Source of the DNA: Polyangiaceae bacterium | GTDB taxonomy: Bacteria > Myxococcota > Polyangia > Polyangiales > Polyangiaceae | Assembly (NCBI GenBank): GCA_025936205.1 | Contig: JAICTU010000260.1 | Coordinates: 1-12,716, forward strand | DNA length: 12,716 bases | Reading direction: 5' to 3' | Part shown: one piece after another, positions 869 to 12,716 of the stretch | Numbering within the stretch: the stretch's first letter is position 1 | Layout: the number at the start of each line of letters is the position of its first letter | Made by a program: the position numbers and the translations under genes | The notes under the pieces: generated by a model | Databases searched by the model: none | What the model saw: the letters and a program-made list of their open reading frames with translations, nothing else | What the model was told of the DNA's origin: nothing

Positions 869-1696
869 TCAGTGGCAGCGCAGGGCGCTGGCGGCTTCTG
901 CCAGCGTGAGCGGCAGGGGGCAGCTGGTGTCCGATTCGTGCAAGCGCAGCCAGAGCTCTGCCGCCCAGGGCGCTCGCACACGCGCGCGCTGCAGCAGTGC
1001 GGTCTGGCGGAACACTTCGCGCGGCGGGCCGTCGGCGACGATGCGCTGGTCGGCGAGCAGCAGGATGCGGTCGGCGAACAGCGGCACCAGATCGACGGCG
1101 TGCGTGGCGAGCAGCAGGCTGGCGCGTCCGGGGCCGCTGGCGCCGGCGATCAGCTCCAGGAAGCCGAGCTCGCCCAGCGGGTCGAGGCCGGCGGTGGGCT
1201 CGTCGAGCAGCAGCAGGGAGGGCTGCATGGCGAGCACGCCCGCCAGGCAGGCCCGCTTCTTCTCGCCGAAGCTGAGCGCTTCGATCGGGCGGTCGCGCAG
1301 CTCGAGCACGCCGAGCTGGCGCAGAGCGTGTTCCACGCGCCGCGCGCTTTCAGCGGGGGAGTGGCCCTGATTTTGCGGGCCGTACAGCGCGTCTTCCCAG
1401 ACGGTGGTGCCGAACAGTTGGTCGTCGGGGTTCTGGAAGACGAGGCCGGCACCGGCTTCGACGGCGCGCGTCGGATCAGAGGTGGTGTCGCGCCCCGCGA
1501 TCCGCACGCGGCCGCGCGTCGGCGGCAGCAGGCCGACCAGCGTCTGCAAGAGGGCCGTCTTGCCCGCGCCGTTGCCGCCGAGCAACGCCACGCGCTCGCC
1601 GGGGTTCAAGTGCAGGCGTACGTCTTCGAGCGCGGGAGCGCCGCCGCGATAGCCGAGCTGAGCGCACTCGAGCAGCAGCGCGGGCGTTTCGCTCAC
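869..1696 (-). CDS. cbiO: CbiO-type ATPase of a cobalt/nickel ECF transporter
   Basis: This 275-residue protein is the cytoplasmic ATP-hydrolysing subunit that drives metal uptake by CbiMNQ. All ABC motifs are present: A-loop Tyr16, Walker A GGNGAGKT at 40-47, Q-loop Gln88 in FQNPDDQLF (a form typical of CbiO/EcfA), signature LSFGEKKR at 141-148, Walker B LLLLDEP at 161-167, and H-loop His199. Length fits the family. The open frame runs far upstream, but the start is taken as GTG at 1696, because it overlaps the cbiQ stop in a GTGA tetranucleotide. A purine-rich GAGAGG also lies 9 nt before it, and the protein then begins directly with the ABC fold. The gene is last in the operon and probably depends on coupling to cbiQ for translation. 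Only one ATPase gene is present, so a homodimer is expected. Confidence 0.93.
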   Translation of the reverse strand: MSETPALLLECAQLGYRGGAPALEDVRLHLNPGERVALLGGNGAGKTALLQTLVGLLPPTRGRVRIAGRDTTSDPTRAVEAGAGLVFQNPDDQLFGTTVWEDALYGPQNQGHSPAESARRVEHALRQLGVLELRDRPIEALSFGEKKRACLAGVLAMQPSLLLLDEPTAGLDPLGELGFLELIAGASGPGRASLLLATHAVDLVPLFADRILLLADQRIVADGPPREVFRQTALLQRARVRAPWAAELWLRLHESDTSCPLPLTLAEAASALRCH

Positions 1697-2460
1697 CAGG
1701 GAGCGCCTCTCGACAGGAGCAAGCTGGCGCCAAGCACCGCGCAGGAGAGCGCAGCGAGCCGGCGATTGCCGCGGCTCTCCGCCGCCCAGGGTGCGCGCTC
1801 GGGCTCCGCGCGGTAGCCGCGCAGCTGCATGGCCTGTCCGGTGAGCACCGATTGATCGAGCGCGCGCGCCAGCGTCAGCCCCGCGAGCACCCCCGAGGAC
1901 TGCAAGCTGCGCCGCCAGCCGCGGTAGCCGAGCCGCAGCGTCTGCGCTGCGCGTGCGGTGTCCATGCTCTCGCGCAGCACCGAGACGTAGCGGCGCGCGA
2001 GGCTCAGGATCTCCAGCAGCGCCGGCGGCAGGTGCAGCCAGGCGAGCGCGCGCTCCAGCTCCAGCCAGGGCGTGGTGGAGGTGAGCCAGGCCGCGATCGA
2101 GACGGCCCCGAGAATGCGCGCGCCGAGCAGCGAGGCCGCCTGCAGGCCCGGCTGGGAGAGGACGATCTCGAAGCCGAGCAGCGAGAGCGGGATGGCGGGT
2201 CCCTCGCGCGTGAGCAGCGCGCGCAACACCAGCGCCACGCAAGCCGAGAACAAGCCGGCGCTCAACGGGCGCAGCAGGCTGCGCAGCGGCACACCGAGCG
2301 CCAGCAGCGAGCCCACGGTGCAACCCGCGATCCAGAGCGGCGCGGCGGGACGCGCCGCGGACAGCACGCACAGCCAGCCGAGCAGCGCGGCGCACAGCTT
2401 CAAGCGCGCGTCACAGCCGAAGGGGAAGCGCCGCGGATCAGGCAGCCCGCGACTTCGCAT
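1693..2460 (-). CDS. cbiQ: CbiQ-type transmembrane (T) component of a cobalt/nickel ECF transporter
   Basis: This 255-residue membrane protein is the scaffold that links the metal-binding CbiM to the ATPase. After a short N-terminal stretch comes DARLKL, matching the D-P-R-x-K start seen in EcfT/CbiQ proteins, followed by several hydrophobic segments. In the C-terminal cytoplasmic half there are two Arg-Gly coupling motifs. One is LRLGYRG near residue 170 and the other is AMQLRG at 210-215, the A-x-x-x-R-G pattern that docks in the ATPase groove. A last hydrophobic segment (LAALSCAVLGASLLL) closes the protein. The ATG at 2460 lies 23 nt inside the upstream cbiN frame, and the stop shares a GTGA overlap with cbiO. 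The start could lie slightly later, but DARLKL must be included. Confidence 0.9.
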   Translation of the reverse strand: MRSRGLPDPRRFPFGCDARLKLCAALLGWLCVLSAARPAAPLWIAGCTVGSLLALGVPLRSLLRPLSAGLFSACVALVLRALLTREGPAIPLSLLGFEIVLSQPGLQAASLLGARILGAVSIAAWLTSTTPWLELERALAWLHLPPALLEILSLARRYVSVLRESMDTARAAQTLRLGYRGWRRSLQSSGVLAGLTLARALDQSVLTGQAMQLRGYRAEPERAPWAAESRGNRRLAALSCAVLGASLLLSRGAPW

Positions 2461-2758
2461 GGCTCGGCTTCTCGTCGATGCGCTCGACGAACAGCATGCG
2501 GTAGTAGTAGCCGAACACGCTGCCGCCGACGATGCCCGCGCACAGGAACAGGAACAGCGCGAGATCGCCTTCCATCTCGAACCAGAGCGGGCGGGGCGCG
2601 CGACCGGCCTCGGCCGCGACCTTCTCGATCACGGATTCATCGATGCCGGACCAGCGCGCGGCGGGTTCAGCAGGTGTTGCAGCGGACGGTGTCTCGGCGT
2701 GGGCGCTCGCGCCGACGAGACACAGCGCGAGGAGCGCCTGCCGGAGCCCGCGCATCAT
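2438..2758 (-). CDS. cbiN: CbiN-like small membrane subunit of a cobalt/nickel ECF transporter
   Basis: This 106-residue protein has an N-terminal hydrophobic segment (ALLALCLVGASAHA, residues 8-21). An extracytoplasmic loop follows, then a second membrane segment at about 65-86 ending in GYY. The loop and second helix follow the CbiN pattern: a G-x-D (GID at 38-40), an acidic/Ala helix, a Pro-Leu-Trp, then E-G and a small-residue helix AGIVGGSVFGYY. CbiN is known to help load metal into CbiM. The start ATG at 2758 overlaps the cbiM stop in ATGA; a second ATG follows at once at 2755. Its position between cbiM and cbiQ is the canonical M-N-Q-O order and adds strongly to the call. The first segment ends AHA-E, so it might be a cleaved signal and not a stable helix. 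The charged C-terminal tail looks lineage-specific. Confidence 0.75.
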   Translation of the reverse strand: MMRGLRQALLALCLVGASAHAETPSAATPAEPAARWSGIDESVIEKVAAEAGRAPRPLWFEMEGDLALFLFLCAGIVGGSVFGYYYRMLFVERIDEKPSHAKSRAA

Positions 2759-3564
2759 GACGCGCCCCCGACGAGACGCGCAGGCAGTACGTCGAGCCGC
2801 TCCAGGATGTCGCGCCGGCGGCGATACAGGAACGATACGGCTCCGGCGCTGAGCACGCCCTCCAGGATGCCGAGCGGCAGCTGGGTCGGCACGAAGGCCG
2901 CGCCCACGGTCAGGAACAGCTCACCGAACGGGCGGGCGCCGTGCAGCGCGGAGGCCAGCTCCAGCGCGGTCACCGTGTAGGTGGCCCAGTCCGAGAGCAG
3001 GCCCGCCAGGAACGCGGCGAGCCAGGGCCGCGCGCCGAAGCGCAGCGCCGCGTGGAAGGTGAAAAAGCCGACGAACGCGCCCGCGATGCCCATCGACAGC
3101 ACGTCGGCGCCGAGCGTGGTGATGCCGCCGTGCGCGAGCAACACCGCCTGGAGCAGCAGCGCCACGACCGTGACCAGGATCGTCATCCAGGGCCCGATCA
3201 GGATCGCGCCGAGCCCGGTGCCGCAGGGATGCGAGCAGGTGCCGGCGGTGGGCACCGGAATCGGCATGCAGGAGATGAGAAACACCGCGGCCGCGACCAT
3301 CGCCACCAGCGGGCGATAGAACAGATCGTCCTTGGCGCGGCGCTTGTAGAGGCGCAGCGCCAGCGCCACGAACGGCAGCGCCACGGCCGTCCAGAGCGCG
3401 GCCCAGGGCAGCGGCAGGATGCCCTCGGCCAGGTGCATGGCGTGCGCGGTGCGCGGTGCGATCCAGAGCACGCTGCCTGCCGCGATACCGGCCACCTGCT
3501 GCCAGCGGCGCGCTTGCTTCGAGCAGGGGCTGGAGGCATGCGGAGCGAGGAACGGCGCGAGCAC
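2755..3564 (-). CDS. cbiM: CbiM/NikM-type metal-binding substrate component
   Basis: CbiM binds Co2+ or Ni2+ on the outer face of the membrane and passes it inward. The core starts MHLAEGILP, directly after a signal-like segment ending TAHA. In NikM/CbiM the mature Met1 and His2 form part of the metal site, so cleavage after AHA would expose exactly that pair. A further conserved site, PTAGTCSHPCG, follows; its His is residue 70 counted from mature Met1, close to the third ligand of the family (His67 in NikM). Multiple hydrophobic helices and the motif GLGAILIGP complete the fold. The GTG at 3564 is chosen because it gives a leader with basic residues (KQARR), a hydrophobic core and the AHA site, in 269 residues. 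The frame is open to an ATG at 3699, but that start overlaps the pirin gene by 74 nt and adds a disordered-looking tail. Metal specificity cannot be read from sequence alone. Confidence 0.88.
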   Translation of the reverse strand: MLAPFLAPHASSPCSKQARRWQQVAGIAAGSVLWIAPRTAHAMHLAEGILPLPWAALWTAVALPFVALALRLYKRRAKDDLFYRPLVAMVAAAVFLISCMPIPVPTAGTCSHPCGTGLGAILIGPWMTILVTVVALLLQAVLLAHGGITTLGADVLSMGIAGAFVGFFTFHAALRFGARPWLAAFLAGLLSDWATYTVTALELASALHGARPFGELFLTVGAAFVPTQLPLGILEGVLSAGAVSFLYRRRRDILERLDVLPARLVGGAS

Positions 3565-3625
3565 GGCCGGACCGTGGCCCCTTCCTGCCGGCGCCGTCAA
3601 TCGCTTTTGCGGCGCGTCGCCTGGA

Positions 3626-4882
3626 TCAGACGGCGCGTTCTTTGCGGCCGTCGGCGTGGATCGCGAAGCGGCCGCTGTCGCGCGAATGCACTGGGTCACT
3701 TTTGGGCCAGGGCCAACCGCCGAATTGAGTGCGCTGATAGTCTGTTCTGGCCTGGGCGATGCCTGCGAGATCGTTCATCACGAACGGACCCCGCGCGACC
3801 ACCGGCTCCCCGATGGGGCGCCCGGCGAGCAGCAGCACCTCGGTCTCGCTCGGACCGCTCGTCAGCGTGACGGGCACGCCCCGGCGCAGACGCACCGCCG
3901 TCTGCAGCGGGATCTCGCGCTGCCCGACGCGCAGCCCGTTGCCTGCAAAGAAGTACAGCGTGCGATCGCTGCGCGGCCCCGCCGCGGGCAGCTGGAACTG
4001 CGCGCCGGCTTCCATGCGCAAGGACCAGATGGCCACGTCGGCATCGGGCACGGCCGCCCACGAATCGGGAGGCGGCGCGGGCGGCGCCGCTTGCCCAAAC
4101 TTGCCGGCGATCACCCGCAGCACGGTGGCGCGCCCCGCCGCGTCGCGCTGCTCGAGGCGCGGGATCTGGCTGTCCCAGAACATGGAGAAGTACGGCTTCG
4201 CGAACTTGCTGCGCGCCGGCAGATTGAGCCAGATCTGAAACAGCTCCGTCGGGTTCTCGCCGCCTTGCTCGAGCAGCGGGAACATCTCCGCGTGAGCGAT
4301 GCCGGCGCCGGCGGTGAGCCACTGCACGTCACCCTCACCGTAGCGCGCGGTGGCGCCCAGCGAGTCCGAGTGATCGATGTAGCCGCGGCGCGTGACCGTC
4401 ACCGTCTCGAAGCCGCGGTGCGGGTGGCGCGGAAACCCCGGCACCACCTCGCCGTGATACATGCTCCAGCCGTCCTTGCCCGCGAAGTCTTCGCCGATGT
4501 TGCGGCCCGCGAGCGACCCTGCCGGCCCGAGCTCGGCGTTGCCGGCGGGATAGCGGTCGTGATGGTGCACGCAGAACAGGAACGGATCGAACGTGGGCCA
4601 GGGGGGAGCACCGAGCTCGAGCAGCGAGAGCACGGGGTCATTGCCGGGCGTGCCTGTTGCAGCGTGGGACGCTGTGCGGCGCCCGGGCTCGGCGCTCGGC
4701 GCGGGGCCGCTCTCACGCGGCGCGCGGGGCGTCCCCGTAGAATCACAGCCGGGCAGGGCCGTGCTCAGACCCAGCGTGCCGGCGAGCAGGAACTCGCGCC
4801 GTTCGAGCCGGCGGTCCCGCGGATGGGCCGGGTCCGAGGCCTCCGCTCGAGGGATATCCTTCTGAAAATCGCGCCGATCCAT
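3626..4882 (-). CDS. Pirin-family cupin with Tat-like lipoprotein signal
   Basis: This 418-residue protein has a two-domain pirin core. All four classical metal ligands are present: His153 and His155 in HPHRGFETVT, then His197 and Glu199 in GIAHAE. The family-typical C-terminal GPFVMND and DYQRTQFGGWPW follow. Bacterial pirins bind Fe or other metals; some oxidise quercetin, others regulate metabolic enzymes in the cytosol. This one appears exported instead. Residues 27-46 read E-R-R-E-F-L-L, a short hydrophobic run and LPGC, that is a twin-arginine-like signal ending in a lipobox (Cys46). A Pro/Ala-rich linker of about 45 residues follows. The start is ATG at 4882, because an AGGAG lies 5 nt upstream and the signal lies near the N-terminus; the frame itself is open to 5044. 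The protein is longer than cytosolic pirins (about 230-300 residues) because of the signal and linker. It sits just upstream of cbiM on the same strand. Confidence 0.88.
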   Translation of the reverse strand: MDRRDFQKDIPRAEASDPAHPRDRRLERREFLLAGTLGLSTALPGCDSTGTPRAPRESGPAPSAEPGRRTASHAATGTPGNDPVLSLLELGAPPWPTFDPFLFCVHHHDRYPAGNAELGPAGSLAGRNIGEDFAGKDGWSMYHGEVVPGFPRHPHRGFETVTVTRRGYIDHSDSLGATARYGEGDVQWLTAGAGIAHAEMFPLLEQGGENPTELFQIWLNLPARSKFAKPYFSMFWDSQIPRLEQRDAAGRATVLRVIAGKFGQAAPPAPPPDSWAAVPDADVAIWSLRMEAGAQFQLPAAGPRSDRTLYFFAGNGLRVGQREIPLQTAVRLRRGVPVTLTSGPSETEVLLLAGRPIGEPVVARGPFVMNDLAGIAQARTDYQRTQFGGWPWPKSDPVHSRDSGRFAIHADGRKERAV

Positions 4883-6350: not shown

Positions 6351-8048
6351 ATGGCGAGTACCAGTAAACGTAGTCCGGTGGCTCCGGGGCAGCAGCTCGC
6401 GGGGAAGTACCGCGTCGAGCGCGAGATCGGCGCGGGCTCGATGGGTGTGGTCGTGGAGGCCTGGCACATCGAGCTGGATCAGCGCGTGGCGATCAAGTTT
6501 CTGTATCCGGAGTTTGCCAGCAATCGGGAGGGAGCGGAGCGGTTCCGGCGGGAGGCGCGGGCGTCGGCCGGGATCGAGAGCGAGCACGTGGCGAAGGTGC
6601 TCGACATCGGGACGCTGGATGAGGGGCACACGCTCTATTACGTGATGGAGTTTCTGCGCGGGCACGACCTGTCGCGGGAGCTTGCTCTGCACGGTCCGTT
6701 GCCGGTGCGGAAGGCCGTCGATTATGTGCTGGAGACGTGCGATGCGCTGGAGGAGGCGCACGCGAAGGGGATCGTGCATCGCGATCTCAAGCCCGCGAAT
6801 TTGTTCCTGGTGGAGCGGCCCAATGGCGAGCAGATGGTCAAGGTGGTGGACTTTGGCATCTCGAAGATCACCGGCAGTGCGTCGCGGCAGTTTTCGCTGA
6901 CGGATACGTCGATCATGATGGGGTCGCCAGCGTACATGTGCCCGGAGCAGCTGGAGTCGTCGCGCAACGTGGACGCCCGCGCGGACATCTGGTCGCTGGG
7001 GGTGATCTTGCACGAGTTGATCGTGGGGGAGATCCCGTTCCGGGGCGAGTCGGTGCCGCAGCTGGTGGGGTCGATCTTGCTGGGCAAGCGGATGTCGTTG
7101 ACGGTGTTGCCCGGTGTGCCGGCGGAGCTGGACGCGGTCGTGGAGCGGTGTCTGCGTCAGAACCGCGAGGATCGGTTCGCCAGTGTTCACCAGCTGCGCG
7201 AGGCGCTGATCCCGTTTTCGACGCTGGGGCGGCGGGCTCCGTCGAGCGTTCCGGCGGCAGTGAGCTCCAGCGGCGTGAGCTCGCGGGCACGGGTGCTGGG
7301 CACGCCCGTGACGCCGGTTCCAGCTTCTCACTCGGGCGCGCTGATCGCGCCGGTTCCCGCCAGCGATGAACCCGTGGGGTCGCTCATGTTGAATTCGGCG
7401 GGTGTGCCGCCCGAGCTGGAGCCGGACGCGCTCCAGGGGGCGGGCCTGAAAAGTAGTGGTTCGGCTCCCGTCTCGTGGGGAGGGACTCAGCGCGCTCAGA
7501 CCTGGAGGCAAGCGATGTTCCGTCGTGGATTGCCGGCTGCACTGTTTGCGGCGCTGGCGCTCGGAGCGGCCTACTGGGTGCTGCGCGTGCGCACGGGGCC
7601 CGCTGCCAAGTTGCCAACGGCGGCGGCAGACGTGGGTTCGTCGGAGGCGGAGCGTTCCGCCGGCGTACGGTCCGCATCGCTGGCGAAGCCCGCGGAGAGC
7701 GCAGGCGAGAGTGCCGCGGACCAGCCGGTGGTGAGGGCGCTGAAGCCTGTGCCGCCGGTGGAGGCCGCGCCAGCTCCCGAGCATCCGAGTTCTGCGGGGG
7801 TAGCCCGCACCCCGACCGAGGAGGCGCCGTCAGCTTCCGAGGCGCGCGTGGCACCGGCCACTGCCGAGCGAGCCAAGGCACCCGCGAGTGCGCCGAAGCC
7901 GGTCAAGCCCAGCGCTGGAAAGGCGCCCGCCGCAGCGCGCCCGGACAGCGCGGCCGCCGGCAGCGCCTCGGAGGCGCGGGATGCGAAGACGACCCGACCG
8001 AGCTTTCTGAACAGGTTGGAGGGGCAGGACTATGGAGGGCGCGAGTGA
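6351..8048 (+). CDS. Transmembrane Hanks-type Ser/Thr protein kinase
   Basis: This 565-residue protein has an N-terminal cytosolic kinase domain (about 20-280). Its catalytic set is complete: glycine loop GAGSMG 27-32, Lys49 in VAIK, Glu68 in the C-helix, HRDLKPAN 143-150, DFG 167-169, activation loop with several Ser/Thr, and DIWSLG 212-217. The HRD arginine suggests control by activation-loop phosphorylation. The loop ends CPE (197-199) where APE or SPE is usual. A Ser/Ala/Pro-rich linker leads to one membrane segment (about 391-410, LPAALFAALALGAAYWVL), after which about 150 residues of low-complexity Pro/Ala/Ser/Glu form an extracytoplasmic tail with no recognisable sensor domain. Start: ATG 6351 gives the usual short lead before the kinase fold. 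A GTG at 6258 is in frame, but its GAAGGA abuts it too closely. The stop overlaps the next gene in GTGA. Substrates are unknown; the two coupled genes are the natural candidates. Confidence 0.93.
   Translation: MASTSKRSPVAPGQQLAGKYRVEREIGAGSMGVVVEAWHIELDQRVAIKFLYPEFASNREGAERFRREARASAGIESEHVAKVLDIGTLDEGHTLYYVMEFLRGHDLSRELALHGPLPVRKAVDYVLETCDALEEAHAKGIVHRDLKPANLFLVERPNGEQMVKVVDFGISKITGSASRQFSLTDTSIMMGSPAYMCPEQLESSRNVDARADIWSLGVILHELIVGEIPFRGESVPQLVGSILLGKRMSLTVLPGVPAELDAVVERCLRQNREDRFASVHQLREALIPFSTLGRRAPSSVPAAVSSSGVSSRARVLGTPVTPVPASHSGALIAPVPASDEPVGSLMLNSAGVPPELEPDALQGAGLKSSGSAPVSWGGTQRAQTWRQAMFRRGLPAALFAALALGAAYWVLRVRTGPAAKLPTAAADVGSSEAERSAGVRSASLAKPAESAGESAADQPVVRALKPVPPVEAAPAPEHPSSAGVARTPTEEAPSASEARVAPATAERAKAPASAPKPVKPSAGKAPAAARPDSAAAGSASEARDAKTTRPSFLNRLEGQDYGGRE
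8034..8039 (+). promoter_or_regulatory. Ribosome binding site deciding the start of the second kinase-operon gene
   Basis: GGAGGG inside the end of the kinase gene lies 5 nt before GTG at 8045 and 11 nt before ATG at 8051. Spacing favours the GTG, which also overlaps the kinase stop in GTGA. Confidence 0.55.
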
Positions 8049-9148
8049 GCATGACTAGCGCGAGAGACCAGCGTTGGAGGGAGGGCACGAGGCTCGCGAG
8101 AGCGCAGTTGCTCGCGCTCGCCGTGGTGGGAGCGGCTGCTCCTGCGGCCGTGGCGCAGACGAATGCGCAGCAGAAGGCGGCGGCAGAGGCGTTGTTCGAG
8201 GACGCCAGCAAGCTGATGGAGGAGGGGCAATACGGCGCCGCGTGCGAGCGCTTCGAGCAGAGTCAAAAGGCGGATCCGGGGGTGGGTACGCTCTTGAATC
8301 TGGGCCGTTGTTACGCGCTGACGGGCAGGCTCGCCAGCTCCTGGGCGATCTACCGCGAGGCAGCTTCAGCTGCGCGCGCTTCGGGTCAAGGGGATCGCGC
8401 GCGCGTGGCGGAAGAGAACGCGCGCGAGCTGCGGCCGCGGCTGTCCGAGCTGGCGTTGCTCGTGCCGCCCTCGCAGCCACGGGGCTATGAGCTGCTGATG
8501 GATAACAACCTGGTGTCTTCGGTGCAGTTCGGGTTGTCCGTGCCGGTGGATGCCGGTCAGCACCTGCTGGTGGCGCGGGCACCGGGTTATGAGCAGTGGT
8601 CGAGCGTGATCCAGGTGGGCGGCAGCGGCGCGCACAAGACGGTGCAGATCCCGTCGCTGACGCCGCTGGTGGAGCCTGCGTCAGCGCCACCAGTGGACGC
8701 CGCGCCGAGCGCACACTTCGCAGCCCCTTCCGCTGTGAATGCGGTAGGGCCGGCGGCGGACGCAGGCAGCTCCGGCAGTGGGAGCGGGCAGAGATGGACC
8801 GGCTTGATCGTCGCCGGCGGTGGACTGGTCGCAGTCGGTGCGGGTGTCGGGTTCGGTCTGCACGCCAGGGGCCTGGACGACGACGCCAAGAAGCTGTGCG
8901 GCGCGCAGGGCTGCTCTACCCCGCAGGGCGAGGATCTGAACGAGAGCGCTCGCAACTGGGCGACAGCGGCGAACGTGGCCTACGCGGCGGGTGGGGTGGC
9001 GCTGGTCACCGGCGCCATCCTGTATTTCACGGCACACGATTCTCCGAAGACGGCGCACGGTGGGTCGTGGCAGGTGGTGCCGGTGCTGGGCGGGCTTCCC
9101 GGTGGCTCCGGCAATGGCTCCGGCGTCGTCGTGGATGGGACGTTCTGA
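8045..9148 (+). CDS. Envelope protein with TPR-like and PEGA-like regions and two membrane segments
   Basis: This 367-residue protein has a signal peptide (about 15-37, LLALAVVGAAAPAAVA, then Q). A helical TPR-like region follows at about 43-128: ALFEDASKLMEEGQYGAACERF, then TLLNLGRCYALTGRLASSWAIYREA, the small/large residue spacing of tetratricopeptides. At about 136-205 is a beta-rich stretch resembling PEGA, with VPVDAGQHLLVARAPGY as its core. A Pro/Ala linker, a Gly-rich membrane segment (252-272), a short loop with Cys285 and Cys290, a second membrane segment (308-329) and a Gly-rich tail complete it. TPR and PEGA parts should face the periplasm, where they could bind other proteins or peptidoglycan. 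Start is GTG 8045 (ribosome site and overlap); ATG 8051 is the alternative. It is coupled to the kinase before it and to the cysteine-module gene after it (TGATG). The biochemical role is unknown. Confidence 0.85.
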   Translation: MSMTSARDQRWREGTRLARAQLLALAVVGAAAPAAVAQTNAQQKAAAEALFEDASKLMEEGQYGAACERFEQSQKADPGVGTLLNLGRCYALTGRLASSWAIYREAASAARASGQGDRARVAEENARELRPRLSELALLVPPSQPRGYELLMDNNLVSSVQFGLSVPVDAGQHLLVARAPGYEQWSSVIQVGGSGAHKTVQIPSLTPLVEPASAPPVDAAPSAHFAAPSAVNAVGPAADAGSSGSGSGQRWTGLIVAGGGLVAVGAGVGFGLHARGLDDDAKKLCGAQGCSTPQGEDLNESARNWATAANVAYAAGGVALVTGAILYFTAHDSPKTAHGGSWQVVPVLGGLPGGSGNGSGVVVDGTF

Positions 9149-10482
9149 TGGCGGCGCTGAAGCTGGGCCCGCGCAGGCTGCTCTGTGGCCTGCTCTTCTG
9201 TGGCACGGGAGTGCTGCTCGCGTTTGGTTGCGTGATCGACGAGCGCAAGTACAACCCGGAGCTGGCGGCCCCCGATGAGGGGACGAGCGAGTTTGCGTTG
9301 TTGCCCAAGGCCAAGCCCGCACAGTGCGAACAATATTGCCGGACGGTGAAGGCCAATTGCACCGGGAGCTATGCGGTCTACCTCGATGATGACAAGAACC
9401 AGGACGGGATCCCCGATGACTGCATGGCGATCTGTCAGCGGCTGCCCGCTGGCAACGAGACGAGCGACAAGGCCAACTCGATCTCCTGCCGGCAGACGCA
9501 GGCCGTTGCGGCCTCCAGCGAGCAGAGCGTCGAAGCTTGCTCGGGGGCGGGCCCGGGCGGCAACAGTCGCTGCGGAGACACGTGCCAGGCGTACTGTCAT
9601 CTGCGCAACGAGATCTGCGGTGAGCAGCCCGGGCAAGACCTCGACTATGATCACTGTCTGCGAGGCTGCGGCGCACTGGAGCCGGGTGACGTCTACGACT
9701 CCGACCCGATGGCGAGGAAAGACACGCTGCAGTGCCGCCTGAACCACCTGGTTTTTGCCAGTCGCAGCCCGGGCGACGCGATGGTGCATTGTCCTCACAC
9801 GTTTTATGTTCCACAGCGAGGAGCTGACCTGGATCCGCCCTGCGCGGATCAGGCGGGGACGCCGGGCGACTGCGAGAAGTACTGCGCGCTGGTCATGAAG
9901 TCCTGTACGGACTCCAACAGCGTGTACGAGAGCCAGGGGCAGTGCCTGGCCGTGTGCAAAGCCTTCCCTCTGGGCAAGGCCGAAGAGACCGGCTCCAAGC
10001 CGGGAGAAAACACGGTCGCCTGCCGCCGCTATCACGCCTATGCATCGCTCGGGCTGGACGGTCCCGTGGTCCACTGCCCGCACGCAGGCCCCACGGGCGA
10101 CGGCCACTGTGGGGACCCCCCAGCGGACGACAACTGCTTCTCCTATTGTCGGATTCTGAAGCGTGCCTGCACCGCGCGCTTCTACCAGGACTACATGACT
10201 GGGCCGCCTCCGGCGAGCCTCGCGGATAACGCCGACGTCGACGACCTGGGCCTGTGCATGGCCAGCTGTCAGATGGTGGCCGGCAGCGGCGCCAATAGCG
10301 GCTATTCGGTGGAGCGCGCCCCCGAAATCTCCGATCTCGACGACAGTGATCCGCAGGGCGACCGGGGGGACGTGCTGCAGTGCCGCGTGTTTCACGCGAT
10401 CCGAGCCCTGGCGGGGAGCACCGGGCTGCTGCCGAATCCCGCAGAGTGTGCCGCAGCCTTCGGCGACACGGAGTGTAAGTAG
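9148..10482 (+). CDS. Secreted four-module cysteine-rich protein, putative lipoprotein
   Basis: I do not recognise a named family. The 444-residue protein begins with a signal peptide (RRLLCGLLFCGTGVLLAFGC). It ends in a lipobox-like Cys28, though the -3 residue is Ala, not Leu, so lipidation is uncertain. The rest is four tandem modules (60-142, 146-232, 242-321, 330-443), each with eight cysteines spaced C-x3-C-x6-C...C-x3-C...CR...C...C. The two invariant spacings hold in all four. Modules 2-4 add H in CRxxH, and modules 2 and 3 add HCPH. The even count and export point to disulfides, while the His residues leave metal binding or heme open. Module 1 carries an acidic loop resembling calcium-binding repeats (DDDKNQDGIPDD, 80-91). 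The ATG at 9148 shares one base with the previous stop (TGATG), so translation is coupled to the kinase unit. Confidence 0.85.
   Translation: MAALKLGPRRLLCGLLFCGTGVLLAFGCVIDERKYNPELAAPDEGTSEFALLPKAKPAQCEQYCRTVKANCTGSYAVYLDDDKNQDGIPDDCMAICQRLPAGNETSDKANSISCRQTQAVAASSEQSVEACSGAGPGGNSRCGDTCQAYCHLRNEICGEQPGQDLDYDHCLRGCGALEPGDVYDSDPMARKDTLQCRLNHLVFASRSPGDAMVHCPHTFYVPQRGADLDPPCADQAGTPGDCEKYCALVMKSCTDSNSVYESQGQCLAVCKAFPLGKAEETGSKPGENTVACRRYHAYASLGLDGPVVHCPHAGPTGDGHCGDPPADDNCFSYCRILKRACTARFYQDYMTGPPPASLADNADVDDLGLCMASCQMVAGSGANSGYSVERAPEISDLDDSDPQGDRGDVLQCRVFHAIRALAGSTGLLPNPAECAAAFGDTECK
9325..10476 (+). repeat. Four tandem eight-cysteine protein modules
   Basis: Modules span 9325-9573, 9583-9843, 9871-10110 and 10135-10476. 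Cysteines fall at residues 60, 64, 71, 92, 96, 114, 131, 142; 146, 150, 157, 170, 174, 196, 215, 232; 242, 246, 253, 266, 270, 292, 310, 321; and 330, 334, 341, 370, 374, 412, 434, 443. The repeats are conserved in cysteine spacing but not in DNA sequence, so the duplication is old. Confidence 0.88.
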
Positions 10483-10831: not shown

Positions 10832-12164
<1,333 letters not shown>

Positions 12165-12190
<26 letters not shown>

Positions 12191-12716
12191 CCTGTGCTCG
12201 GTGGGGCAAATAGAGTCGGAAGGTCGAGCCTTCGTCGGGCGCCGAAGCCACCTCGACGAAGCCGCCGTGTTCGCGCACGATGTCGCGCGCCACGCTCAGG
12301 CCGAGCCCGGTCCCTTCACCGTTGGTCTTGGTGGTGAAAAACGGCTCGAAGATCTGCTCTCGAGAATCCGGGCTGATACCGGGGCCTTGATCCCTGACGG
12401 AAAGCACCACGTATTCACCCTGCGCACCGCTCTCGTCGCAGCGTCCCTCGGTGCTCACTCCCAGAGAAACCTGGCTGCCAGAGCGACTGGCCTGGATGGC
12501 ATTCAGCACCAGGTTGATCAATGCCTGCTGCAGCTGCCCGGGGTCCGCGAACAGCTTGGCCTCCGAATCCTGCTGCTCCACGAGCAGGCTCACTCGCTGC
12601 TGCTCCGCCAGGCCGCGCAGCAGGTCATAGACCTGCCGCACCAGGTCCGCCGCGGGAAGCCACATGCGCCGGGGCGGCTTGCGGCGCGCGTAGTCGAGGA
12701 TGCCGCGCACGATCTG
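12165..12716 (-). CDS. Sensor histidine kinase, C-terminal part (gene continues past the window)
   Basis: Only the last 183 residues are visible; the frame is open to the window edge at 12716. The first visible residues (QIVRGILDYARRKPP) match the end of a HisKA dimerisation helix just after the phospho-acceptor histidine, which lies outside. The ATPase domain follows with N-box INLVLNAIQAS, G1 box VRDQGPGIS, F-box EPFFTTK and G2 box GTGLGLSVARDIVREHGG, then the usual FRLYLP end. It should phosphorylate the downstream NtrC-type regulator, whose gene it overlaps by 26 nt. The sensor domain and membrane topology cannot be known from this window. The GTG at 12710 is not a real start, since it lies within HisKA. 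Confidence 0.92.

What the first reader, a model, noticed from the sequence alone, without database searches (positions are those of the whole stretch)
6351..10482. Coupled kinase, TPR/PEGA-like and cysteine-module unit as a candidate undescribed envelope system
Three plus-strand genes overlap by 4 nt (GTGA) and 1 nt (TGATG). They encode a transmembrane Ser/Thr kinase with a disordered external tail, an envelope protein with TPR-like and PEGA-like regions, and an exported protein of four eight-cysteine modules. The overlaps are seen directly; that the products act together is inference. The kinase lacks a recognisable external sensor domain, so the two partners could supply sensing or scaffolding.
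Basis: partly seen in the sequence, partly recalled or inferred. Interest (0 to 1): 0.75.

Follow-up and report, generated by a model that had tools for sequence, protein, structure and literature searches.

The report
Sensorless kinase with conserved tail tag
In soil-dwelling myxobacteria a signalling kinase without a sensor of its own carries a short conserved label at the outer end of a floppy tail, and usually sits beside a partner gene that probably reads that label, with an extra cysteine-rich protein added in some lineages; this suggests one way such bacteria might wire up their many kinases.

Summary
In detail: kinase 6351-8048, TPR/beta-domain protein 8045-9148 and cysteine-rich protein 9148-10482 overlap by 4 and 1 nt. 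The unit is conserved: of 29 loci with the four-module Cys protein, 28 have the TPR gene directly upstream and 27 of 28 assessable ones have the kinase.

New: the kinase's outward tail is hypervariable (median identity 25%, against 56% for the kinase domain) but ends in an invariant C-terminal motif, [FY]GGR plus one or two residues, in all 26 readable triad kinases. Searching for the motif alone found 42 tag-ended membrane proteins (two not kinases); 35 have a TPR/PEGA-type gene within about 1.4 kb, and 14 of these have no Cys gene on the stretch, though 13 of those genomes have one elsewhere. So the tag goes mainly with the TPR gene; the Cys protein is an accessory. Two other kinase/TPR pairs keep their own tags, LFDDRK and DLNDPH.

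Best reading: the tag docks the kinase onto the TPR domain in the periplasm, supplying the missing sensor in trans. Binding is inferred, not shown.

The parts
6351..8048 (+). Transmembrane Ser/Thr kinase, 565 aa: kinase domain (res 20-280), juxtamembrane linker, TM segment, disordered tail inferred to be extracytoplasmic, C-terminal tag
   Evidence: Pfam Pkinase 158 bits; TM and tail
7527..7583 (+). Transmembrane segment of the kinase (residues 393-411)
   Evidence: hydropathy maximum after the kinase domain
7584..8024 (+). Low-complexity P/A/S/T/E-rich tail, hypervariable among relatives
   Evidence: median pairwise identity 25% among 25 triad kinases against 56% for the kinase domain
8025..8045 (+). 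C-terminal tag QDYGGRE-COOH, this lineage's form of [DEQP][FY]GGR-x
   Evidence: 26 of 26 readable triad kinases end in [FY]GGR plus one or two residues; 83 of the 120 listed best kinase homologues
8034..8039 (+). GGAGGG, likely Shine-Dalgarno of the TPR gene, here overlapping the tag's GGR codons
   Evidence: sequence; codons vary elsewhere, so it does not explain the tag
8045..9148 (+). Exported TPR/PEGA-like protein, 367 aa (GTG start; ATG at 8051 also possible)
8156..8440 (+). TPR helices (residues 38-132), proposed reader of the tag
   Evidence: AF2 pLDDT over 90 in nearly all of this part; Foldseek matches to peptide-binding TPRs, none at E<=0.001; profile match to solved TPRs
8444..8647 (+). 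Beta domain, PEGA-like/transthyretin-like (residues 134-201)
8783..9031 (+). Predicted helical hairpin, probably in the membrane (residues 247-329)
   Evidence: AF2 helices 247-284 and 293-329
9148..10482 (+). Putative lipoprotein of four eight-cysteine modules, 444 aa; carries the precomputed Pfam label PF28386
9229..9231 (+). Invariant lipobox-like cysteine C28 (AFGC)
   Evidence: invariant in 41 rows; loose lipobox in 35 of 41, strict in 9 of 41
9325..9573 (+). Cys module 1 (res 60-142)
9583..9843 (+). Cys module 2 (res 146-232)
9871..10110 (+). Cys module 3 (res 242-321)
10135..10476 (+). Cys module 4 (res 330-443)

Best explanation
A trans-sensing kinase unit. Shown by sequence: a membrane kinase without a sensor domain carries a variable tail whose last 5-7 residues are conserved, and it is usually encoded beside an exported TPR/beta-domain membrane protein; in a subset of genomes a lipoprotein-like protein of four (or two) eight-cysteine modules is the third gene. 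Inferred: the tail is a periplasmic tether and the C-terminal peptide plugs into the TPR groove of the partner; the partner (beta domain plus membrane hairpin) and, where present, the Cys protein, perhaps held in the outer membrane, perceive an envelope or extracellular state and hold or cluster the kinases, which switches trans-phosphorylation on or off. Different tag/TPR pairs in one genome would keep parallel kinases insulated; tagged kinases without a TPR neighbour would share a partner made elsewhere.
For: Triad conserved with changing flanks. Tag in 26 of 26 readable triad kinases while the tail diverges; codons vary and the downstream gene often begins tens of nt or more away, so it is not a ribosome-site effect. 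Tag-only searches of 183 genomes: 60 places against 14 in the reversed controls; 42 are ends of membrane-anchored proteins, 35 of them with a TPR/PEGA-type gene within about 1.4 kb, three divergent; 14 of the 35 have no Cys gene on the stretch. Two tag-ended proteins are not kinases (one with cyclic-nucleotide-binding domains, one with no known domain), yet keep TM, tail, tag and TPR neighbour. Tagged kinases without a TPR neighbour (L193, L194, L199, L200) lie in genomes that have a triad elsewhere; L199/L200 and L193 fall outside the triad clade, and the tree needs at least 6 changes of tag state on supported branches. Two other kinase/TPR pairs keep other tags: LFDDRK, 5 places, and DLNDPH, 6 places, 0 in the reversed controls. 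Two near-identical kinases beside a Cys gene but no TPR gene (L014, L016) end in KNPY instead. The TPR model resembles C-terminal-peptide-binding TPRs of Hop, CHIP, Tah1 and Tom71.
Against: No binding was tested; the peptide was not co-folded with the TPR. Foldseek matches to peptide-binding TPRs are weak (none at E<=0.001), and any short TPR may find them. By my hand alignment to recalled Hop residues, the carboxylate-clamp Lys of helix A1 is a Phe here. TPR position 85 (Tyr in 26 of 27 triads, Asn in 6 of 10 other pairs) does not track the tag's F/Y cleanly. Seven of 42 tagged genes have no TPR gene on the fetched stretch; two of the three divergent TPR genes are about 1.2-1.4 kb away, so a gene may lie between. 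13 of the 14 genomes of tagged pairs without a neighbouring Cys gene have a Cys-module match elsewhere, so the Cys protein is not fully excluded. L009 has TPR and Cys genes but no kinase; L081 has kinase and Cys but no TPR between. Among the shorter Cys genes, half (16 of 32) had no TPR gene upstream by the script, and one tag there is FGAR. Other kinase/TPR pairs in one Sorangium genome end in 15 different ways, only two of which were followed. The Cys protein's place rests on a lipobox-like motif alone.
Confidence: 0.6

Rival explanations
1. The tag is read by another periplasmic protein, such as a PDZ-type or C-terminal-tail protease that trims or degrades the kinase; the TPR neighbour is there for another reason.
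For: A short invariant C-terminus on a disordered tail is also what processing proteases read (general knowledge). Tagged kinases without a TPR neighbour on the stretch exist: L193, L194, L199, L200, L247, L248.
Against: 35 of 42 tag-ended genes lie near a TPR/PEGA-type gene, some divergent, which a general protease would not explain; two other kinase/TPR pairs have other conserved tags.
Confidence: 0.15
2. The tag is read by the Cys protein, encoded next door or elsewhere, and the TPR protein is only an assembly factor.
For: All readable four-module triads carry the tag. 13 of the 14 genomes with a tagged gene and TPR neighbour but no Cys neighbour have a Cys-module match elsewhere.
Against: Those 14 genes keep the TPR gene, not the Cys gene, beside them, and one of the genomes (G096) has no Cys match; two near-identical kinases beside a two-module Cys gene without TPR lack the tag (L014, L016).
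Confidence: 0.1
3. The motif is a by-product of DNA constraint at the gene junction (Shine-Dalgarno GGAGG read as Gly-Gly-Arg) and the triad is an ordinary operon.
For: In the window GGAGGG does encode part of the tag.
Against: Other loci use GGC/GGT/GGG codons, the TPR profile starts up to 366 nt downstream, three TPR genes are divergent, and D/E-F/Y before GGR is not explained.
Confidence: 0.03
4. Conserved operon acting together, but the tag serves folding, export or membrane insertion of the tail rather than partner docking.
For: The tag sits at the translocated end of the tail; it is also on two non-kinase proteins.
Against: 51 other Sorangium kinase C-termini inspected have no such motif; two other TPR pairs have their own conserved tags.
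Confidence: 0.12

Closest known systems
PASTA-type receptor Ser/Thr kinases (PknB/PrkC)
   Same: Hanks-type kinase domain, TM, outward C-terminal part; best NCBIfam match is PknB_PASTA_kin
   Different: 247.5 bits against a cut-off of 450, matching the kinase part only; no PASTA match; outward part is disordered with a C-terminal tag
Hop/CHIP/Tah1/Tom71 TPR domains that bind C-terminal EEVD-type peptides
   Same: Short TPR domain paired with a conserved C-terminal peptide on a flexible tail; the model resembles them
   Different: Exported bacterial protein with a beta domain and probable membrane hairpin; tag is DFGGRR-like, not EEVD; clamp Lys on helix A1 not conserved (hand alignment, recalled residues)
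Myxococcus xanthus multikinase-associated TPR protein MkapB (recalled; 0 occurrences in the listing)
   Same: TPR protein that partners Ser/Thr kinases in a myxobacterium (recalled)
   Different: Recalled as a two-hybrid partner of several kinases; no exported TPR/PEGA architecture or C-terminal tag known to me; not compared here
Pfam PF28386 (precomputed label; model and name not available here)
   Same: The Cys protein and all 54 hits bear the label
   Different: The label gives no function; the three-gene context and module anatomy are described here
PD-T4-6 anti-phage kinases (PADLOC)
   Same: Kinase domain scores up to 262.6 bits
   Different: Most listed matches lie over the kinase domain; partner genes and tag are not part of that system as I recall it

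Membership tests
Hanks-type Ser/Thr kinase | Pkinase domain over the curated cut-off | tested here: met
   158.1 bits against 31.7
PASTA receptor kinase (PknB/PrkC) | Extracellular PASTA repeats; PknB_PASTA_kin cut-off | tested here: not met
   No PASTA in the Pfam scan; 247.5 bits against 450
TPR protein | TPR repeats over the Pfam cut-off | tested here: inconclusive
   TPR_16 19.3 bits against 32.7; family profile matches solved TPRs, best 2.4e-18; TPR helices in the model
PEGA domain (PF08308) | Match to the Pfam model | tested here: not met
   No PEGA match at E<=1 for the window protein; homologue P0174 carries PF08308; beta domain modelled
Carboxylate-clamp TPR | Conserved Lys/Asn/Lys/Arg clamp residues (recalled) | tested here: inconclusive
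   Hand alignment to recalled Hop residues: helix A1 Lys is Phe51; position 85 Tyr or Asn; Arg118 conserved in 27 of 27
Bacterial lipoprotein | Signal peptide with lipobox Cys | tested here: inconclusive
   Invariant Cys28; loose lipobox 35 of 41, strict 9 of 41; window AFGC is non-canonical
PF28386 | Match to the model | not testable with these tools
   Precomputed label on P0001, 100% identical to the window protein; no match in the Pfam copy
PD-T4-6 defence kinase | Anti-phage function, defence context | tested here: inconclusive
   Kinase domain matches; Pfam names of window neighbours are cobalt transport, pirin, DarP and a two-component system; function not testable

The most novel reading that the evidence does not exclude
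Bacteria of the order of Sorangium wire many sensorless membrane kinases, and other membrane effectors such as a cyclic-nucleotide-binding protein, to periplasmic TPR/PEGA-type receptors through a peptide code: each receptor family reads its own C-terminal tag (FGGR-x, LFDDRK, DLNDPH and others), effectors without a receptor gene beside them plug into one encoded elsewhere, and cysteine-module lipoproteins, whose modelled fold found no match in the PDB, are added as outer sensors.
Probability: 0.4. Interest if true: 0.87.

Novelty: new variant of a known kind. Interest (0 to 1): 0.72.

Why it matters
Two myxobacteria, Sorangium among them, had the highest numbers of eukaryote-like kinases of the genomes analysed by 2010 (opening of the abstract of PMC2887360, seen in the listing). 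How such kinases receive signals and avoid crosstalk is, to my knowledge, largely open. A five-to-seven-residue, easily mutated tag that co-occurs with a neighbouring receptor-like gene makes that question directly testable: peptide binding, tag swaps between paralogous pairs, and prediction of kinase/receptor partners from sequence alone. It would also give a role to a large class of unexplained TPR/PEGA-type proteins and a context for the PF28386 cysteine modules.

Tried and rejected
Own-genome search: no genome is held. Natural kinase-TPR fusion as proof of partnership: L068, L125 and L205 looked like one open frame, but in L068 and L205 the tag lies in another frame than the kinase domain, and in L125 a signal peptide of the TPR gene seems to lie inside the frame (by eye); not used as evidence. 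Shine-Dalgarno artefact: rejected. Defence reading (PADLOC PD-T4-6): kinase-domain similarity. Plasmid search for the Cys protein: no match. Phylum-wide tag search with a looser pattern: matches in 82 of 377 genomes, reversed control in 66 by my count; of 27 loci opened (about 1.5 kb each side), none had a tag-ended kinase or a TPR hit; the other places were not opened unless known. Literature: (listings and abstract openings only; no paper was read) showed nothing on this unit. One search searched three tag strings and PF28386 and found 0 papers in the open-licence PMC library; subscription papers and preprints are not covered.

Rows left out of counts: L001 (contig starts inside the TPR gene) from kinase counts; L068 (tag in another frame) from readable C-termini, but kept among the 42; in the tag tallies, places ending in TGG (not a stop; 7 of 36, 3 of 24), two FGGS variants not opened, four places not at the end of an ORF of 50 aa or more (L195, L196, L202, L232) and two short ORFs without a kinase (L197, L201). 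After checking, I moved the 'Cys protein reads the tag' rival from 0.08 to 0.10 because of Cys matches elsewhere in 13 of 14 genomes, and the protease rival from 0.17 to 0.15.
Full report

Is the unit conserved? A scan of GTDB contigs with the Cys alignment gave 19 loci. A search of 183 genomes of the order of Sorangium (Polyangiales by my recall; the call does not name it) found Cys modules in 97 and the four-module form (E<1e-75) in 24 (at most 10 candidates per genome were scored). I fetched 40 wider neighbourhoods, 15 of four-module and 25 of shorter Cys genes, chosen from the listed places. Among 61 Cys rows in all, 29 are four-module (window included). Of these, 28 have the TPR gene directly upstream on the same strand (exception L081). 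The kinase stands upstream in 27 of 28 assessable loci: L009 lacks it, L001 starts inside the TPR gene, and L068 and L071 were read by eye because the automatic rule missed them. Distances from the TPR stop to the start of the Cys profile run from -36 to +135 nt over the 28. Flanking genes are not shared beyond sublineages (in one lineage glycine-cleavage genes). Of the 32 shorter Cys rows, 16 have a TPR gene upstream by the script and 10 of those a kinase; 9 of these 10 kinases end in [FYL]G[GD]R plus 0-1 residues, one in FGARQ. The other 16 have no TPR upstream, and two of these (L014, L016, near-identical) have a kinase directly before the Cys gene. A phylum-wide even sample (377 genomes, at most 5 candidates scored in each) has Cys modules in 98, but the full four-module match only in genomes already in the order-wide set; elsewhere matches are partial or in long repeated frames.

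The tag. Every one of 26 readable triad kinases ends in [FY]GGR plus one or two residues. Over 25 of them (one per locus) GGR is invariant, the preceding aromatic is F in 24 and Y in 1 (the window), and the residue before is D 19, E 3, Q 2, P 1. The tail between TM and tag has a median pairwise identity of 25%, the kinase domain 56%. In L068 the tag lies in another frame than the kinase domain, by an apparent frame break in the record. Codons vary and the TPR profile starts up to 366 nt after the kinase stop, so the Shine-Dalgarno sequence that overlaps the tag in the window does not explain it. In the protein database, 83 of the 120 listed best homologues of the kinase (of 7228 hits) end in [FY]GGR-x; the others end in different strings, some of them recurrent, or are short. 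Close relatives of the window share DYGGRE.

What the tag goes with. Two DNA patterns for [DE]FGG[RS]-x-stop, blind to neighbours, gave 36 and 24 places in 183 genomes, against 12 and 2 in the reversed controls by my count. Of these 60 places, 42 are ends of membrane-anchored proteins: 20 loci known from the Cys search (19 triads and L081), 5 further of the first kind (L193, L194, L198, L199, L200) and 17 of the second. 39 have a kinase domain (in L068 and L234 in another frame than the tag); L198 is a contig-end fragment with only TM, tail and tag; two are not kinases: L240 has cyclic-nucleotide-binding domains, L233 no known domain (their TM segments were judged by eye). A TPR/PEGA-type gene lies within about 1.4 kb in 35 of 42, three times divergent (L239 directly, L237 and L238 about 1.2-1.4 kb away). 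It is absent from the fetched stretch in L081, L193, L194, L199, L200, L247 and L248. Of the 35, 14 have no Cys gene on the fetched stretch (L198, on a short contig, not counted); but 13 of those 14 genomes have a Cys-module match elsewhere. So the tag follows the TPR gene as a neighbour rather than the Cys gene, though a distant Cys protein is not excluded. The four tagged kinases L193, L194, L199 and L200 lie in genomes that have a triad elsewhere (G010, G008, G004, G006). On a tree of 103 kinases the tag state (loosely, [FYL]G[GD]R plus 0-2 residues) needs at least 6 changes on supported branches; L199/L200 lie far from the triad kinases, while L194 is a near relative of L081. Long branches make exact placement unsure.

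Other tags. In one Sorangium genome 51 other kinase C-termini were read from 40 fetched stretches, none FGGR-like; 15 of these kinases have a TPR-profile gene downstream and end otherwise. Two of those ends were followed: LFDDRK-stop occurs at 5 places in 183 genomes and DLNDPH-stop at 6, none in the reversed controls. 10 of the 11 show a kinase domain (L205 in another frame), L281 only a tail; 4 of 5 and 5 of 6 have the TPR gene within about 1.5 kb. Most of these genomes are close relatives, so this is weaker than the FGGR case, though the 100 residues before DLNDPH have a median identity of 47% (5 sequences).

Mechanism. Shown: order, conservation, tag, association with the TPR gene. Inferred: the tail is periplasmic (a TM segment after a cytoplasmic kinase domain), the tag docks in the TPR groove, the partner senses, and the Cys protein extends the unit towards the outer membrane. 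The TPR model resembles TPRs that bind free C-termini of Hsp70/Hsp90, but without a strong score, and the classical clamp Lys of helix A1 is not there by a hand alignment to residues I recalled. I put 0.6 on the whole explanation: about 0.9 on the tag being functional, 0.65 on the TPR protein being its reader, 0.4 on the Cys protein being an outer-membrane sensor.

Known or new. Receptor kinases with fused sensor domains (PASTA) and C-terminal-peptide-binding TPRs are known; a bacterial membrane kinase whose sensor is joined in trans through a conserved extracytoplasmic C-terminal tag did not appear in seven literature searches of the open-licence PMC library (listings only). I file it as a new variant of a known kind.

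Noticed in passing
L010 5201-9143 (+) and 13754-17060 (-): Two kinase-TPR-Cys triads face each other in one locus, with different tag ends (FGGRR and FGGRRY).
   Followed up: partly
L014 6457-8468; L016 2059-4085: Kinase directly before a two-module Cys gene, without a TPR gene; these near-identical kinases end in EAPRKNPY instead of the FGGR tag.
   Followed up: partly
L007 9058-9930 (-); L071 3081-3965 (+); L072 8106-8984 (-): A small convergent kinase beside the triad in one lineage, ending in SPY/PPY.
   Followed up: no
P0180, P0194, P0286, P0232, P0234, P0233, P0235, P0236, P0245, P0276, P0280: Further recurrent kinase C-termini ([QK]Y[KR]PECL, YNPLDHL, DPAL..R, NPLAIELK) that may be additional tag families.
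   Followed up: no
L240 1816-4026 (+); L233 2547-4556 (-): Non-kinase membrane proteins (one with cyclic-nucleotide-binding domains) carry the same kind of tail and tag and a TPR neighbour.
   Followed up: partly
G124 C249:6723, G127 C18:11926, G128 C39:28849: EFGGRQ-stop places in three genomes of the order, not opened; possibly further tagged genes.
   Followed up: no
G278 contig 91 near 178976-181756; G366 contig 94 near 246874-248595: Long open frames (1776 and 957 aa) with repeated Cys-module matches: the module is also used in tandem arrays in other genomes of the phylum.
   Followed up: no
window 869-3699 (-): Cobalt-type transporter genes: CbiQ and CbiM by Pfam, with an ABC ATPase-like frame that I judged by eye.
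   Followed up: no
window 10832-12716 (-): Sigma-54-type response regulator and a histidine-kinase ATPase part, an ordinary two-component pair, downstream of the triad on the other strand.
   Followed up: no
TPR/PEGA family C-termini: Many TPR/PEGA-type proteins end in a strand-like motif G-x-[FWL], e.g. GGTF(E), GGRF, RGTW; its role is unknown.
   Followed up: no
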